Origin: Chlamydoabsidia padenii
Taxonomy: Eukaryota > Mucoromycota > Mucoromycetes > Mucorales > Cunninghamellaceae
Assembly: GCA_025330725.1 (NCBI GenBank)
Contig: JAIWND010000014.1
Location: 186,001-250,000, forward strand
Direction: 5' to 3'
Length of the DNA: 64,000 nt
Positions within the stretch are counted from its first letter, which is position 1. Every line of letters starts with the position of its first letter. Below are positions 19-55,877 of this stretch, in pieces. The notes under the pieces were generated by a model. That model was not told the DNA's origin, did no database searches, and was given only the letters and a program-made list of their open reading frames with translations. Both the position numbers and the translations under genes were made by a program.

Positions 19-1705
19 CTAGATCTCCAGCATTTCCAAAGGTGTAGTTACAGCCTGTTGAGAGCTATTGGATGGTGATTGAGGAGGAGTGGCCATATCC
101 AGTGAAGGTGAAAGATTGCATGAATCAGACTTGTCATCGGTAATGTTAGGTGATAAAACTGGTGTAGGGCTGTTACTGGTGCTAGAGGATCGTCGTTTCT
201 TGTCGCCGGCATCAATCAGAGGACGAGCATGTTCTCTAAAAGTCAATTTTTCATTAAAGATGCCTATCACAGTCCCTGTAGCCTTGTGTGAGATGTTGTC
301 GAGTGAGCCCACCTTGGCCGAAGCATTTATCTTGAGTGGTGCATGAATAATCTTGGTGGTGGATTCCTTGGGTTTATGATGAATGTTATCCAAGGAGCCG
401 ACCTTTGATGAGGCGTTGATTTTAAGGGGTATGTCGTAGATCTTTGTTGTTGATTGCTTGGGTTTGTGTTTGATGTTCTCCAGCGAACCTACTTTGGATG
501 TTGCATCGATCTTGAGGGGTTCGTGGAAGATCTTGGTAGTGGATTCCTTTGGTTTGTGTTTAATGTTGTCCAATGAGCCGACCTTTGACGAGGCGTTGAT
601 TTTGAGTGGTACATTGTAGATCTTGGTAGTGGATTCTTTGGGTTTGTGCTTGATATTGTCCAACGAGCCTACTTTGGATCTGGCTTCAATCTTGACTGGT
701 TCATGGAAAATCTTGGTGGTGGATTCCTTTGGTTTGTGCTTAATGTTGTCGAGTGAGCCCACTTTAGATTTTGCTTCAATCTTGACTGGTTCATGGAAGA
801 TCTTGGTGTTGGATTCCTTGGGTTTGTGTTTGATATTGTCGAGTGAGCCCACTTTGGATCTGGCTTCAATCTTGACTGGTTCATGGAAGATCTTGGTGGT
901 GGATTCCTTTGGTTTATGCTTGATGTTGTCCAACGAGCCAACTTTGGATCTGGCTTCAATCTTGAGTGGCGCGTGTAATATCTTGGTGGTGGATTCCTTG
1001 GGTTTGTGTTTGATATTGTCGAGTGAGCCCACTTTGGAAGTCGCTTCAATTTTGAGTGGTTGGTGGAAAATCTTCGTCGTGGATTCCTTGGGTTTATGCT
1101 TGATATTGTTGAGTGAGCCCACTTTGGATCGTATAACAACGCCGTCTTTTGTTGATGAAGAATGATGATCCATTTCGCCTAAAATGAGACAAAAAAAAAA
1201 AAAAAAAAGAGGGAGGTTTTCTGTTAATGATCATTATAAACATGTGTGTATGATTGACAAGCAAAATCCTCCCCATATATCCTATTTTTATACCATTCCC
1301 CCATGGTCATATCTTTATTTTTCGCCACTCCTTTTTTTCAACTGTACCTGATCCGGATCGCCGTTTCAATTTATCCACATTATCGGATTGGCCATTTTGT
1401 TGGTTATTATTGTTGATAGCAGTAGGAGAGCGCATACCAGTCGGAGAGAATACTCTATTAGGAGAGCGTATACCCAAAGGAGAAGGAATGCCGGTAGGAG
1501 AGGTGGTACGAGTAGGAGAGCCATTACTATTCGTCTTTGAAGAGATTGTTGTAGAAGACCGACGACTTGAAGAAGAGGAAGCAGAGGTAGGACTTTTTTC
1601 AGAGTCGGAAGAAGTGTTTTTGCTGGAAGACTTGGTGATTACTGTGGTTGCCTTCAAGCTTGTTTGTAGTTGTGGTCTACCATTAGCAAAAGAAGAGATA
1701 GGCAT
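19..1705 (-). CDS. Tau/MAP2/MAP4-like microtubule-associated protein with ten tubulin-binding repeats
   Basis: Two exons, 1705-1348 and 1178-19. The GT-AG intron 1347-1179 joins in phase and gives 505 residues. Residues 1-119 are Ser/Thr/Pro-rich with a run of SP motifs (SPTG, SPLG, SPNR), the type of proline-directed phosphosite that surrounds the repeats in tau. Residues 137 onward are ten tandem 30-residue repeats, each with a core like KVGSLDNIKHKP followed by a basic/hydrophobic linker ending KIEA or KINA. The tenth repeat diverges and continues into KLTFREHARP, matching the end of the last tau/MAP2/MAP4 repeat (KLTFREN). That match argues for true family membership rather than chance similarity. 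Metazoan tau-family proteins bind along the microtubule lattice and stabilise it; here that role is inferred. Metazoan members have 3-5 repeats with a GGG stretch, replaced here by KES. The start is the first ATG of the open frame; a 5' non-coding exon cannot be excluded. Confidence 0.88.
229..1128 (-). repeat. Ten tandem 90-bp coding repeats (tubulin-binding repeat array)
   Basis: Ten direct repeats with exact 90-bp spacing and no indels encode the 30-residue tubulin-binding units. Units 2-5 are nearly identical at protein level, while the first and last three differ more. This is the pattern expected of array growth by unequal exchange in the middle. The tenth unit keeps the ancestral-looking C-terminal boundary. 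Confidence 0.9.
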
Positions 1706-2364: not shown

Positions 2365-2402
<38 letters not shown>

Positions 2403-38637: not shown

Positions 38638-38993
38638 TATATATACTTGATACTTTTTTGTTTTACTTCTTTGATTAGTTAATTGATAGTATAGTCCTTT
38701 TATGTCAACTTGAATACAATAAAGAATTAACTTCAAAAAATGGGGGATCATCGGGATTTAAATTTATCTTACAAAAGTAAATTTCGTGCAACACTACAAA
38801 AAACGTTCCTTTCTTCATTTATTTGTTTTATTTTTTTTTTTACACCTTTTTTTTTTTCCCTTCCTTTTTCTTCTTCTTCTTCTTTGTCTTACCCAATCCC
38901 TTCCTTTATTCTTATATCATTTATATCCTTTTGTATCATATTCTCTATATAATCTATCTACCATTTTTATATTCCAGGTGATATACTTTTAAG
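38638..38993. promoter_or_regulatory. Promoter/5' leader of the DOCK gene
   Basis: T/C-rich sequence. TCGGGATTTAAATTTA lies at about 38751-38765, roughly 240 bp before the ATG. Long T and CTT runs precede the start. The sequence ACTTTTAAG immediately precedes the ATG. Confidence 0.45.
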
Positions 38994-41900
38994 ATGACCA
39001 CAGTTAGGTGGGCACCACTATCCAAAATCGCCCATGGAATAGCGATTGCTCCTTTTACACCAACGAATCCTCCACTTTACTCTTCGGCAACTTCATCACA
39101 TTCCCGTCCCATCACGGTCTACTCTAATATACAGTCTCCAACAACTGACTCTTCATTATTGAATGCTAATCGACTCTCCACTGCTTCTTCTGACATCTCT
39201 TCTATCAGCACTAATGATTATGCATATTTAGCACCATTGGAAGTAGGTGATGAACTTTATATCTTTGAACAAAATGGTGCTTGGTATCGTGGTTATGTAC
39301 TTAGCTCACTTGAAGAAGGTCGGAAACCTCACATGGCACCTAATGGTATTTTCCCTCGATCACACGTACAAATAAAGGAATATGTGGATATGGACTTAGC
39401 TGATTGTGGTATACTTTTATCAAAAAAATACTCTTCAGCAACGACAACAATTCCAATGGCTAACGAATGCAACAGTGATAATGGTGGTTTGGGTGGATTC
39501 GACTTGTTGCCTCTGTCGCCTACTCCTTCCTCTTATAGTGGTAGCAATGTGGTGTTTAATTCGACTTTCACTACTGATTCAATGTCAAGGTCTCCATCAG
39601 GGTCACAATTTGGAAATCATGAACTGGTTAGTCCACCTCCTCTTTTATCTCCTACTCTGAATCTATCAACAACTACTACAAGTACAAGCTCTGGTCTTGG
39701 TGCTGGCCATTCGCGTCCTACTAGTGGTATCGACTTTGACAACAACAGCAACAACAATATCTCTTCTTCTCCTGCTGATATTCAACCACAATATCAACGT
39801 CCTTTCCAAAGTAGATCAACGGCGGATGGGGATCATGATCATCAACAACAGCAACAATTAAAGCGACCATCACCACCACCTTTACCTATGGTACGATTTG
39901 ATCAGTCTACTGTTACTGGAATGGATGAACCTTTAGTTGATGAAATTGCTGCTTGTGTCAGTGAATGGAATTGTCTGCTCTACACCTATTTACAAGAAAG
40001 TCGGTACGCCGCCTTCAATGCAGTAAGGGATCACATTAACTATCTCTTCCAAGCACGACGTCAACTGTTGGATCAAGCACTCTCTAGGGAAGAATTATCA
40101 AGACTACGGAAGGAAATCATACAACGGATGGTGACGATGAATATATCTCAGTATCGTGAAATGATCATTCGACACCCTGAGCGTGGATTTATCTTGGATA
40201 TCAACAGTACCTCGGTGGCAACTTTGTACTATATGCACTGGAAATACACCATCTCTGAACAAGTCCCGATCACATCTCTTTTCCCTCAGTCATTCTTGTC
40301 GGATACGGACTCTGTCAAAACGTCCAATGGATCGGTGATTCCAACCACTTCTTCCTCTACATCTTCTTCGAGTCAACAAAGGTTACACGGCGGACACTCA
40401 TCATCACCGTCCATGTCTTCTTTGAATGATCAACAACATCGACCTCAGCAACAGCGGCACCAAACGAAGAAAAGAAAGGTACCACATCACTATAAAGGCG
40501 GTGAATTCCATCACATGTTTTTTGATCTCAAGGCATGTGTGGCTCATATCTGTCAACCTGGTGAATGGACTGAATTGAAGTTCTCCTTGTATTCTGCTAG
40601 TCAAGGAAAATTCGTGGCGGAACAATTTGTGGTCCATCTCAACTATAATGGTATGCCTAAAGACGAACGACAAATTGGAAAACTTCAATCTTTGTTTGTG
40701 GATTTGGCAAGTCAAGATCTTAACGAACATCTCTATTTGGTCTGTCACATCTTTCGCTTGGGGGGCATGAAATCTGTCGACAAGGAAAAGGATCATCTGG
40801 GATCTCTGGGTAGTCATGCTTCTTCTCTCTTTGGTGGTCATCATAATCAACAACAATATCAGCATGGTGCTACAGGTAAGAAGAGCAAACAGACCATCAA
40901 ACACAGTACTCACTCTTTTTTTTTTTGTTTTTTTTTTGTTTACAGGGAATGGAGGTGGACATTCTTCTTCTTTCTTTGGTAGTAATCATAATCAACAACA
41001 ATATCAGCATGGTGCTACAGGTAAGAAAAACGTATAAACTAGCAAACACATTACTCACTCATTTTGTTTTCGTTTATAGGAAATGGGAGTGGATATTTCG
41101 ACTATAACAAACGGAATCATCAGCGAAACAACTCTCAGCAACAAAACTCTGTCAACTCCAACGATCCGACAGCTATACCTTTGTCTGCTCACACTAATCT
41201 CTTCCGACGACCTTTTGGATGTGCTGTTTTGAACATTGGACGACTCTTACAACAAGTTGATCATGGTAGTGCGGCAACTCAAGCAATGTACAGTAACTCA
41301 ACCGGGAACGGGGGAACACCAACCGGGCCACGATCAGCGACGATGTACTCCGATGTAGACTTGATGCGCTCACCAACCCTATCGGCAGGATCTCAGCTTT
41401 CTCCAACAGCAACACAAGGATCATCTAATGCCAATGGAAATACAATCAACGTCCTATCAGCAACTTCAGCAACAACATCCTCTTCAGGTCCTTCATCAAA
41501 TGGGGACTCGGGCAATCATGCTGTACATTACTTTATTGCACCTTCGGAACATGATATGCGGATCTATACACCATCATCAGAATCCACTTTTGCTCACCTC
41601 CATGAAGACATCATTCAAGATAACACCAAGGAATTGGACAACAACCCACGTGCTGAAATGATCTGTGTCTACCTACGAATGTTTTACGGCCAACAGGATG
41701 AAGTGCTCAAGATAAATGCGGCGCTATTACAAGGTATTCCTTTGACACCGAGGATTGGATTCCCTGATGTGGTGTTTCCTGATGATGAACGAAATGAACT
41801 CTACATCACTCTCAACTCGGGTGATTTTGCTCAATTCGGTCGAACAAGAAACATTCAAGTCATTCTTTGTGCTCGGGACAATATTACTGGCGATGTGGTG

Positions 41901-44900
41901 GAAATGGCTGTCTCGGTTGGATCAGGGACATCAAAAATGTCGACTTGGGAAAGTGCTATTTATTACCATGAAATGAAACCTACTTGGAATGAAATGGTCA
42001 AGATCAAGATCAGCGATGTTAGTGTCTGGCAGCGATCTCACGTATTTTTGGTGGTCAAGCATCGAAGTCGTCATGGTGGAGGTCCTGGCTCGATAAATGG
42101 CAACAACAATGGATATGGAAATACACCTGGTGGGAATGCACTTGCTCGAATGACGGTGGAAGGCAACACATCATCTTCGGATAAGATCTTGGCGATGGGC
42201 TATATACCTCTCTTTATTCCTCCTTTGTCCAATGACTTTGTGGCTGATGGTACTCATACTCTCTGTCTGTACAAGTATGATAGGCAGCTACTCCATCCTT
42301 CTTCTTACTTTGGGGTTTTACCTTGGTGCTCTCAAACAACTGCTCCATCGAATCTCCAAGGTCAAGAAAGTATGATCCAATCCGTCCTTAGATCAAATCG
42401 TCAACGTACAGTTGGTCATCATCACTCAAACTCAAGTTATTCCAGCGTCAAAAGTGGCAGTGGCAGTAGTGGATCTCTCAAAAACCTCCCGTTATTCCAT
42501 CAAAATGGCAGCCATCACACTATTACTTCAGTGGGTATGGATACGGGATCATCATCACATGGCGGCTTTGGTGGTGCTTCAAAATTACACGCTGTCAGGG
42601 ATTCTTTGGTGGTGTCTACCTTTTTATGCTCGACACGATTTACACAAAATACTACTCTGGTACAACTAATCAACTGGCGGGCAATAGTTGAAGGTCGTGT
42701 CATTGGAAAATCGGCATCGGCAACTACAGCAACAAGCAACGGTGTGGACGATCTACTGGTATTATTGGACAAGTTTACATTTGTGGGTGAACAAGAAGTG
42801 GTTAAGTTTTTGGCTGATATCTTTGATGCCCTTTTGGATATTCTGGCTTATCGCCTGCCTGATGCTCCGGAAAAACAAGATGCTCTCCATGATCAAGTCA
42901 TTGTTGCCATCACCTGGGTACTCAGTATTGTACAAGATCGACGATTCAGCAACTTCCGTCCGGTGCTTAATGTCTACATCAACCAAAGATTTTACTCCTT
43001 TGAAGACGACGACGACGACGACGACGAAAAAAAAACTAACAACTCTGTTGACTGTATGGACGACATGACGGGTGGCAAACCTGGCTCACCTGATGTAAAT
43101 CCTCGGCGCAAAGTGACACTGGATGAAACGACATATAACCAGCTCTTGAAAGGTTTGATTCGACTGGCCACCAATCCTAGCGACATCACCAAGGCAAAAC
43201 GACTACGAAGCAGCATAAAGGTATGGGAATATCTCTTCCGGTTTATCGAACGATCAAGGGAAATGCAGCGCAGTAATGAAGATCAAGGTGAACACGAACT
43301 CCGGGAACTGATGTACAAGGAAGACCTCCAGCAATTCTTCGACTTGGCTACAAACATGATGCGTCCGGATCAACCCAATTCGATGATTGGTACTCAAACT
43401 TTGGTGTTACAGCACTTTTGTGAAGCTATTACTGAAGTTAGGGATGCTTACTCGTCTAGTGAAATTGTGGATATCATCTCGACATTTGTGGATGCCTGCT
43501 CACATGTTACTGGTAAATTGGTTGGATTCAAGCTCAGCATGATTCTGGCGATCATCAAGGCACCCATCTTTAGTGACAAGGCATGTTGTTGTGAACTTGG
43601 CAATCAGGTGGTGCGATGGATTCAAGTCTGGCTCAATTCATACATGGCGGTGGCGAAAGAGGTAATTTTTGCTCGGACGGCTGATAATGGTAATGGCAGT
43701 TCCCAACATGGCGGTGGCGACGATCATCATCAGCAAACAAGGTTACCTCGGGCACAATGGATTGAAAATCTACGATTGTCTTTGACCATTGTTCATGAAA
43801 TTCTCGACAAGATCCGGAAGGTACGTGGTATGTCAATTCCTGGTTTATCCTCGGCAACGGCGGTATCAGCATCGTCTGTGCATGGTGGAGCATCAAGTAC
43901 CACTGGATCGGTGGTGGCAGCAAACTCTCGAACAAGACCGGTATCGATGTCAACGGCAGGTGACGAAGAAGAAGATTATGAACCGATTGATAACGGTGAC
44001 AGTCCTTTAAATTCTCTTACCAGCACTTTGATGTTACTGGTCCCTCAGCTGCTTCATACATACAAGGATCTTCAACGTTTGACAAATCAAGCTATACAAG
44101 CAACGGCGGCTCCATCGTCGGGAAGGACAAACAACTCGGCGCCAACATCGATGACGATGAGGGATTCTCACAACTCTATGGTGATTGGATCTAATGCGAC
44201 AAGACCAAACTCAAGACATTCTCTCACTGTGCTTCGTGAACGTGCTAATTCGATCCGTGGACTACCGAGTGTTTTGGAAAATATGGGCTCCTCGGGAATC
44301 GATCAATACAATGGCGCTCAATTCAAACCGGTACCATCTCCGGTGGTATTACAAGCATTGGCAACTTCACCTACCACACCATTCCCATCAATTTATCCTT
44401 TCCAATCAAGTACGTCCAGTGATGTGGCTCTAATGGCGGGATCCGACTTGGCGGCAATGGTGACTTCTGGGCTGATGGACCTGACAGTGGTTTTACTCGA
44501 CTTGTTCCACTTGACACCGGGGACTCAATGGATCCATCTTTTACGAAACATGGCGACAAGCACTGACGGAACTCCTACTACTGGACCTAAAGCAACTGCC
44601 GACTATATATCCACACTTTGTTACGTGTGCATGGCGATGTTATATGGTGACGATATTCAAAAATTGGCCGAGACGCATGGTACAGTGGATGGCTACGACG
44701 CTTTTATGGAAGATCCTACACGTGAACGGCGCAAATGGGCGAAGGATTGGCTAAATCTGGATGTGGTGGCTCACAAGATCATTCTGGCGAACGTCTTGAC
44801 ACCAATAACAGCATTACTGGATATAGATCTATTTGCTCCTAGTAAACAACAACAAGATGCCGAAGGTGATGATGTTATGGTAAAACTTTGGCGGACGGTG

Positions 44901-47195
44901 TTTGTTACTGTGGTGCGTATCTTGGCAAGTTCGTCTTTGGAAGTCGAAACCCTCCTACCTCAAGCGCAACGAGCGGTCTGGAAACTGGCTGGTAACATTC
45001 GGGGCGAAGAAGGTGTGTCTGCTCTGGAACTACTTTGGGATTCAGTTGGACCTTCTCGGCGGCAGTCTACGATAAAAAGAAAAAATGATCGACTGCGACA
45101 AGAATCAAAAGACCTCAAAATGAAACCACAACTATTGGCCTTTTTTGATCAGAAAAAAAGACATTCTGCCGTTACTCGTGATGATATTGATACTGGTGGT
45201 GATCCTGATGATTCTGACCTGGACTCTTTATCTGATCTCTCTAGTAATGACGGCGGTGATGGTGATTGCGGTGTTATTGACAATGGTAATAGAGGATATG
45301 GTACTACTTCATCACTGGACAAGAAACCATCATCCGAAGATACTACTCATATACATTTGGATTTGGTGCCGATACTACTGAAACCTCTCTGTGCAGCCAG
45401 TCTTACGCTACACGACAAACTTCGGGTTACAACGATTGGGATGATGGCTGATCTTTTTGCAATTCAAACCCCAACATCCAATGATGCGGCAACACTACAA
45501 AACATGATGATTGGAACTATCGACAAGCTGGTGATGACTTATGGCAAAGGCAGTGATGAAATTCGGGTCAAGTGGGTGGTGGAACTGGAACAAGCATTGC
45601 AAGTGCGACTCACGACAGATCAAGAACATGCATGGGGACAAGGCTTGGTGGATTCGCTGGCGAACTTGATGGAACTTCTTTTGAAGATTCGGTCTTTGCC
45701 TATGGGTAGTGCGGAATTCATGGACGAACGGATTAATGCAACACTCCAGTTAATGAAGTTTATTCAAGTATGCGAACGACAAGAAATCTATGTCAAGTAC
45801 GTGCACCAACTGGTCGACCTCCATCTTCAAAACAATAATTTTGTCGAAGCAGCATTGACGTTACGATTCCATGCCGATCTGCTCTCTTGGGACCCTTACG
45901 ATGAAGTGGATGCTATACCTGAACTTGGTTTTGGGGTGGAAACTCAATTCACTCGGAAACAAGCTTTGTACGAAACGATGATTACTTATTTGGATAAAGG
46001 TACAGCTTGGGAATTATGCGTGGATCTATGTCAAGAACTGGCTGATCACTATGCGACAACTCTAGTGGATTACGAACGATGCAGTGGAATCTTACACCAA
46101 AAGGCTACTTTTATGGAAAACATTGTCAAGAAAGAACGGTATTACTCTGAATACTTCCGGGTGGGCTTTTATGGACGTGGATTTCCTGCTGGTCTTCGGA
46201 ATCAACACTTTATCTATCGTGGTATGGCTTGGGAAAAGATGTCTTCTTTTATGGAACGCATGCAAAATCGACATCCGAATGTGCAACTGGTCTCGGGTAA
46301 AATGGCGTCCTCTCCTCTCCTGCCTGAAGATCAAATCCGTGAACTGGAAGCCGAATTGGATGGTCAATATATACAAATTACGGCTCTGACACCTGTGATG
46401 GATCCTCAAGCCAGTCCTATCCTGATGAATCCTTTGGCATCCGACAAGGTCAAGAAATACTACCACTTTAACAATGTATCTCACTTTACTTACTCAAGGC
46501 CGGTGACAAGGGAAGATGACAATTATGGAGGAAACACTATTGGCGATGGCATTCTTGACGATATAACTAGTGATTCAAATGATAACAGCACCGACATCAG
46601 CTCTGATGATACTTCCATCTTGACCGAAGCACCAATTATGTCGAAACAAGAACTGGACTTCTTACATCTATGGACTGAGCGAACAACATTCACAAGCGAA
46701 GACACATTCCCTGGTATTGCCCTACGATCGAAAATTGTGTCCATCGAAATCCGAGAAATATCTCCTATTGAAAATGCGGTCGAAGCTATGAACAATAAAA
46801 CCAAGGAATTGACTGCTCTGGAAAAGACATACTCGGTATATCTCAGCAACAAACAAGCATCCTTCAACTTGAATCCTTTCTCCATGTCCTTGAATGGTGC
46901 AGTGGATGCTCCTGTCAATGGTGGAGTCCCTCTATACAAGAAAGCATTCTTATCTCCCTATTATGTGAAGAAACATCCTGGTATGCGGAATTGGGTGGAT
47001 CAATTGAAAAAGGCGATCGATGAACAGGTAAAAAGGAGAAGAAAGAAAGAAAACAGTAATTGTACTTGGTCACTCATCGTCATATCTCTATACCATTTTT
47101 TAGGTAATTGTGATTGATCGATGCTTGGACACACATGATAAGCTTGTCAGTACTGAAATGCGCCCATTTCACAGCAATTTGGTGGAACGTAAGTA

Positions 47196-52253: not shown

Positions 52254-55877
<3,624 letters not shown>

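What the first reader, a model, noticed from the sequence alone, without database searches (positions are those of the whole stretch)
229..1705. Fungal tau/MAP2/MAP4-type protein with ten tubulin-binding repeats
The repeat core KVGSLDNIKHKP and the terminal KLTFREHARP correspond to the repeats and exit segment of metazoan tau/MAP2/MAP4. Ten units exceed the 3-5 usual in animals, and the GGG of each animal repeat is replaced by KES. The N-terminal half carries clustered SP sites like the tau proline-rich region. Such proteins are generally thought of as animal-specific, so this could be an ancient opisthokont MAP retained in early fungi, or a transfer.
Basis: partly seen in the sequence, partly recalled or inferred. 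Interest (0 to 1): 0.86.

Follow-up and report, generated by a model that had tools for sequence, protein, structure and literature searches.

The report
Fungal tau-type microtubule-binding repeat protein
A fungus carries a gene for a protein with ten copies of the microtubule-binding repeat known from the brain protein tau, which suggests that this way of gripping microtubules may be older than animals.

Summary
A two-exon minus-strand gene (window 1705-19) encodes 505 residues with ten units, all scoring as Pfam repeat PF00418 (273.8 bits, E 2.9e-83). Solved human tau is found by sequence alone (best E 5.2e-19). Homology is supported by order: the tenth unit scores best with tau's last repeat R4, and a KLTFRE exit segment follows, as in tau. 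Units differ mainly at synonymous sites (dN 0.105, dS 1.31). The gene sits on an 863-kb contig and is the only PF00418 locus found in its genome, so contamination is unlikely. It probably lies along microtubules, one SKVGSLDNIKHKP core per tubulin dimer, with KXGS phospho-control; binding is inferred, not shown. PGGG and the VQI hexapeptides are missing. It is not the first fungal case: a 2016 paper has Rhizopus delemar in its tau/MAP2/MAP4 tree. Ancient or transferred could not be tested, because no fungal genomes were searchable. One result stays unexplained: codon use in the repeat array departs from the rest of the gene and from its neighbours.

The parts
1348..1705 (-). Exon 1: serine-rich N-terminal region (119 codons and one base), six SP/TP sites clustered at residues 63-94 (window 1519-1424)
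1179..1347 (-). Predicted intron, 169 nt, GTACAG...TTTTAG
   Evidence: one of 22 GT-AG pairs giving over 450 residues; second longest product (505 aa); no transcript evidence
19..1178 (-). Exon 2 with stop codon at 21-19: repeat array, exit segment and tail
319..1128 (-). Repeat units 1-9, 30 residues each (residues 137-406), consensus SKVGSLDNIKHKPKESTTKIFHEPLKIEAR
   Evidence: PF00418 matches; units listed; coordinates
229..318 (-). Unit 10 (residues 407-436), diverged; scores best with tau repeat R4
205..249 (-). Exit segment KLTFREHARPLIDAG (residues 430-444; overlaps the end of unit 10), matching tau KLTFRENAKAKTDHG
   Evidence: 1 of 20000 shuffles reached the local score
22..204 (-). C-terminal tail (residues 445-505) with seven SP/TP sites

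Best explanation
A native fungal gene for a structural microtubule-associated protein of the tau/MAP2/MAP4 repeat superfamily (PF00418). The protein is probably disordered and basic. It probably lies along a protofilament with each SKVGSLDNIKHKP core anchored on alpha-tubulin at the contact between dimers, so that up to ten dimers in a row are tied together, which would stabilise or bundle hyphal microtubules. Phosphorylation of the KXGS serine in the units, perhaps by a Kin1/MARK-type kinase, and of the SP/TP sites at both ends would weaken binding. Shown: open gene, repeats, homology, excess of synonymous over non-synonymous change, conservation of the tubulin-side contact residues, a kinase with a KA1 domain in the genome. 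Inferred: splicing, disorder, binding, stabilisation, phospho-control.
For: PF00418 273.8 bits, ten stretches; 44 distinct PDB sequences matched, all named as tau; tau-repeat profile E 8.6e-55 against 0.21 for the best of 2000 shuffles. Unit 10 scores 70 with tau R4 (R3 63, R1 52, R2 32) and the exit segment is matched by 1 of 20000 shuffles. pS exceeds pN in 36 of 36 pairs of units 1-9. Of seven tau contact positions named in PMC6692637: S258 kept in 9 of 10 units, K259 10 of 10, S262 10 of 10, K267 8 of 10, I260 is V in 10 of 10. Tubulin side: seven alpha residues the same in 4 of 4 alpha-tubulin genes and two beta residues in 6 of 6 beta-tubulin genes. KXGS in 10 of 10 units. Three KA1 matches, the strongest next to a kinase domain. 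Charge-hydropathy on the disordered side in all regions, net charge +31 in the array.
Against: K274 is kept in 0 of 10 units and K281 in 1 of 10; PGGG in 0 of 10 units. Tubulin is so conserved that its contact residues do not discriminate. The kinase piece is nearest to AMPK alpha-2, with MARK3 a little behind, so the kinase class rests on KA1. By z-score unit 10 fits R4 (10.5) hardly better than R3 (10.4), and the R4 score includes the start of the exit segment. Codon use of the array is not that of the neighbours. No expression or binding data; gene conversion may distort dN and dS.
Confidence: 0.8

Rival explanations
1. The gene came into this fungal lineage, or into early Mucoromycota, by horizontal transfer from an animal, and the array was then expanded. 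It would work in the same way.
For: The exit segment is very like that of vertebrate tau; codon use of the array differs from the rest of the gene and the neighbours (r -0.04 against 0.55). Absence from yeasts and other well-known Dikarya is recalled, not tested.
Against: Synonymous divergence between units is high (dS 1.31), so the array is not recent; the non-repeat part has codon use like the neighbours; another fungus, Rhizopus delemar, has a family member.
Confidence: 0.25
2. Contamination: an animal gene in a fungal assembly.
For: Codon use of the array departs from the neighbours.
Against: It lies 186 kb into an 863-kb contig with EF2, sirtuin, DOCK and kinesin-like ORFs beside it and a CotH match on the same contig; units 1-9 are of a type not seen in the four tau repeats.
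Confidence: 0.01
3. Chance or convergent likeness: a basic low-complexity repeat that only resembles tau, with some other function.
For: Short basic repeats are common in disordered proteins; the linker half of units 1-9 (PKESTTKI..P.KI) does not follow tau. The Pfam matches DUF7689 and DUF3704 show that composition alone can give hits.
Against: The best of 2000 shuffles reached only E 0.21; the order of array, R4-like last unit and exit segment is that of tau.
Confidence: 0.03

Closest known systems
Rhizopus delemar member of the MAPT/MAP2/MAP4 family (PMC4815063; abstract and passages read)
   Same: A fungal protein placed in the same family; the paper calls its domain architecture distinct.
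Human tau (MAPT), repeats R1-R4 and exit segment
   Same: Core SK.GS..NI.H.P, KXGS site, R4-like last unit, KLTFRE exit segment, SP/TP sites on both sides, basic array.
   Different: Ten units of 30 residues against four of 31-32; PKES in place of PGGG; no VQI hexapeptide; no cysteine in the array.
Teleost MAPT forms with 5-7 repeats (PMC4815063, passages)
   Same: Array lengthened by internal duplication.
   Different: In the Antarctic rockcod the second tau repeat with its cysteine is multiplied; here seven of nine units score best with R2 and two with R4, without cysteine.

Membership tests
MAP2/tau repeat superfamily (PF00418) | Significant match to the tubulin-binding repeat model | tested here: met
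   273.8 bits against a cut-off of 27, E 2.9e-83; all ten matches marked over the cut-off
MAP2/tau repeat superfamily (PF00418) | Tandem repeats followed by the conserved exit segment | tested here: met
   KLTFREHARPLIDAG after unit 10; 1 of 20000 shuffles
MAP2/tau repeat superfamily (PF00418) | Basic, disordered array next to regions with SP/TP sites | tested here: met
   Net +31 in the array; charge-hydropathy on the disordered side; 7 SP/TP before and 7 after the array. A composition test only
MAP2/tau repeat superfamily (PF00418) | Binding to microtubules | not testable with these tools
   Inferred from contact residues
Vertebrate tau/MAP2/MAP4 subfamilies | PGGG in each repeat (typical feature; whether defining is recalled) | tested here: not met
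   0 of 10 units
Vertebrate tau/MAP2/MAP4 subfamilies | Three or four repeats of 31-32 residues | tested here: not met
   Ten units of 30 residues; 3-4 as stated in PMC4815063
Vertebrate tau/MAP2/MAP4 subfamilies | Placement inside a vertebrate subfamily on a tree | not tested
   No relatives could be fetched

The most novel reading that the evidence does not exclude
Tau-type repeats are older than the split of animals and fungi. The early fungal form works with a long array of the SKxGSxxNIKHKP anchor alone, without PGGG and without the hexapeptides that drive tau fibrils, and is switched off by a Kin1/MARK kinase at the KXGS serine, so that the tau phospho-switch is far older than neurons.
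Probability: 0.4. Interest if true: 0.75.

Novelty: new member of a known kind. Interest (0 to 1): 0.5.

Why it matters
Tau is mostly studied as a neuronal protein, and the one family study seen here traces MAP4 to a metazoan ancestor (PMC4815063, passages). A fungal member with ten anchor cores but without PGGG or the VQI hexapeptides is a natural experiment on which parts of a tau repeat are needed to bind microtubules and which only to aggregate. It also makes the age of the KXGS phospho-switch testable in an organism without neurons.

Tried and rejected
Scans with exon 2 found no confirmed relative in viral contigs (2 stretches matched a pattern, none confirmed) or in prokaryote genome contigs (18 and none); these reach close relatives only, and neither collection was expected to hold fungi. 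The 14 control genomes of the genome search gave no match for the tubulin family either, so their silence for PF00418 says nothing about eukaryotes. The Pfam matches DUF7689 and DUF3704 have no stretch that passes on its own; I take them for composition effects. The promoter and terminator scan is built for bacteria and was of no use. A search for ribosomal RNA did not complete. The organism could not be named; a mucoralean fungus is inferred from 26 CotH matches (pieces, not genes), where the link of CotH with Mucorales is recalled and 3 of the 14 control genomes, all prokaryotes, also match. Papers: ten searches; only PMC4815063 was seen to name a fungal member. Passages of PMC13406575 (12 of 20 places shown) and PMC12941056 (6 of 6) did not bear on it. 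Codon-use tests gave a result against a simple reading and are told in full.

Full report
What is there. On the minus strand at window 1705-19 lies a gene of two predicted exons (1705-1348 and 1178-19) with a 169-nt GT-AG intron. Of 22 GT-AG pairs that give more than 450 residues, this one gives the second longest product, 505 residues; the longest, 519, would add a stretch with five F in a row. There is no transcript evidence. The product has a serine-rich N-terminal region with seven SP/TP sites, six of them clustered; ten repeat units at residues 137-436; an exit segment; and a tail with seven more SP/TP sites.

Is it more than chance. All ten matches are marked over the PF00418 cut-off, the weakest exactly at it; the whole protein has 273.8 bits and E 2.9e-83. 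The PDB search by sequence lists 44 distinct sequences at E 0.001 or better, all named as tau. A profile of the four tau repeats gives E 8.6e-55 for the protein and 0.21 for the best of 2000 shuffles. Unit 10 scores best with tau R4 (70; R3 63, R1 52, R2 32), although by z-score R4 (10.5) and R3 (10.4) are nearly equal and the R4 score includes the start of the exit segment. Of units 1-9, seven score best with R2 and two (units 6 and 8) with R4. The continuation KLTFREHARPLIDAG matches tau KLTFRENAKAKTDHG; 1 of 20000 shuffles reached the local score (all). Repeats and exit segment stand in the same order as in tau, which points to common descent.

Is the gene real and old. Pooled over 36 pairs of units 1-9, pN is 0.098 and pS 0.619 (dN 0.105, dS 1.31), and pS exceeds pN in 36 of 36 pairs. 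The array is thus not a fresh expansion, and its protein sequence has been kept; gene conversion could distort these values. Tandem Repeats Finder gives a period of 90 bases and, with a higher score, one of 270 bases, so blocks of three units may have been copied.

Is it native. The window is part of contig C6 of 863 kb in a genome of 34.2 Mb in 95 contigs. Of 30 ORFs of 150 residues or more, 20 were scanned against Pfam and 11 had a match at E 1e-5, among them elongation factor 2, a sirtuin, zinc fingers, a DOCK-type protein and the end of a kinesin motor. A CotH match lies on the same contig and 26 lie in the genome; CotH as a mark of Mucorales is recalled, and it is not exclusive (3 of 14 prokaryote controls match). 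The non-repeat part of the gene (205 codons) has codon use near that of seven pooled neighbour ORFs (r 0.55; 22 pieces of those ORFs of the same length have mean 0.62, lowest 0.15), but the repeat part does not (r -0.04; GC3 0.567 against 0.341 in the rest of the gene, 0.322-0.425 in the neighbours and 0.462 in tubulin exons). A null in which half of the repeat codons are shared between units gave no value as low as that of the whole gene (0.31) in 1000 draws. Duplication with GC-biased conversion could explain this; it was not tested. The neighbour ORFs are stop-to-stop frames and may contain introns.

How it probably works. The Fig. 3 legend of PMC6692637 (passages read) names seven tau positions in contact with tubulin. 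K259 and S262 are identical in 10 of 10 units, S258 in 9, K267 in 8; I260 is V in 10 of 10; K274 is kept in 0 and K281 in 1. On the tubulin side Y262, I265, E420, E423, D424, E434 and V435 are the same in 4 of 4 alpha-tubulin genes, and S423 and D427 of beta in 6 of 6 beta-tubulin genes; the beta numbers were converted by an offset of ten, from my own knowledge of tubulin numbering. Because tubulin is so conserved this is a necessary condition and no more. The KXGS motif, the MARK site of tau (S262), is present in 10 of 10 units. The genome has three KA1 matches; the strongest lies next to a kinase domain whose nearest PDB relatives are AMPK alpha-2, Snf1 and MARK3, in that order. Kinase plus KA1 is the make-up of Kin1/MARK kinases (recalled). 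The likely picture is a long, disordered tether that ties up to ten tubulin dimers of a protofilament and is released by phosphorylation. Binding and control are inferred.

What is known. PMC4815063 (2016; abstract and passages read) names Rhizopus delemar among non-vertebrate homologs and calls its architecture distinct, while tracing MAP4 to a metazoan ancestor. So fungal membership has been in print, in one clause. In ten paper searches I saw no paper that studies a fungal member (open-licence papers only, most seen as listings). The present protein is a new member of the PF00418 superfamily. It is not filed as tau, MAP2 or MAP4 proper: PGGG and the number of repeats do not fit.

What stays open. 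The age of the family in fungi and the direction of any transfer could not be tested: the genome has no relatives held, the protein database was off, and the contig collections scanned are viral and prokaryotic.

Noticed in passing
window 1128-229, minus strand: Codon use of the repeat array departs from the rest of the gene and from the neighbours: GC3 0.567, T-ending codons rare for S, P, V, G, A and D. Cause unknown.
   Followed up: partly
window 284-1128: A higher-order period of 270 bases scores above the 90-base unit, so the array may have grown in blocks of three units.
   Followed up: no
window 620-1165, plus strand: An open frame of 181 residues runs antisense to the repeat array; probably a by-product of the repeat.
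   Followed up: no
window 38982-47117, plus strand: Two long ORFs with DOCK_N, DOCK-C2 and DHR-2 domains: a DOCK-type exchange factor in a fungus.
   Followed up: no
window 52254-53393, minus strand: ORF that begins with the last 40 positions of a kinesin motor domain.
   Followed up: no
genome G000, loci L009-L018: Six beta-type and four alpha-type tubulin genes; further Tubulin_C matches on contig C7 were not classified.
   Followed up: partly
window 2366-2400: A run of 35 A upstream of the gene.
   Followed up: no
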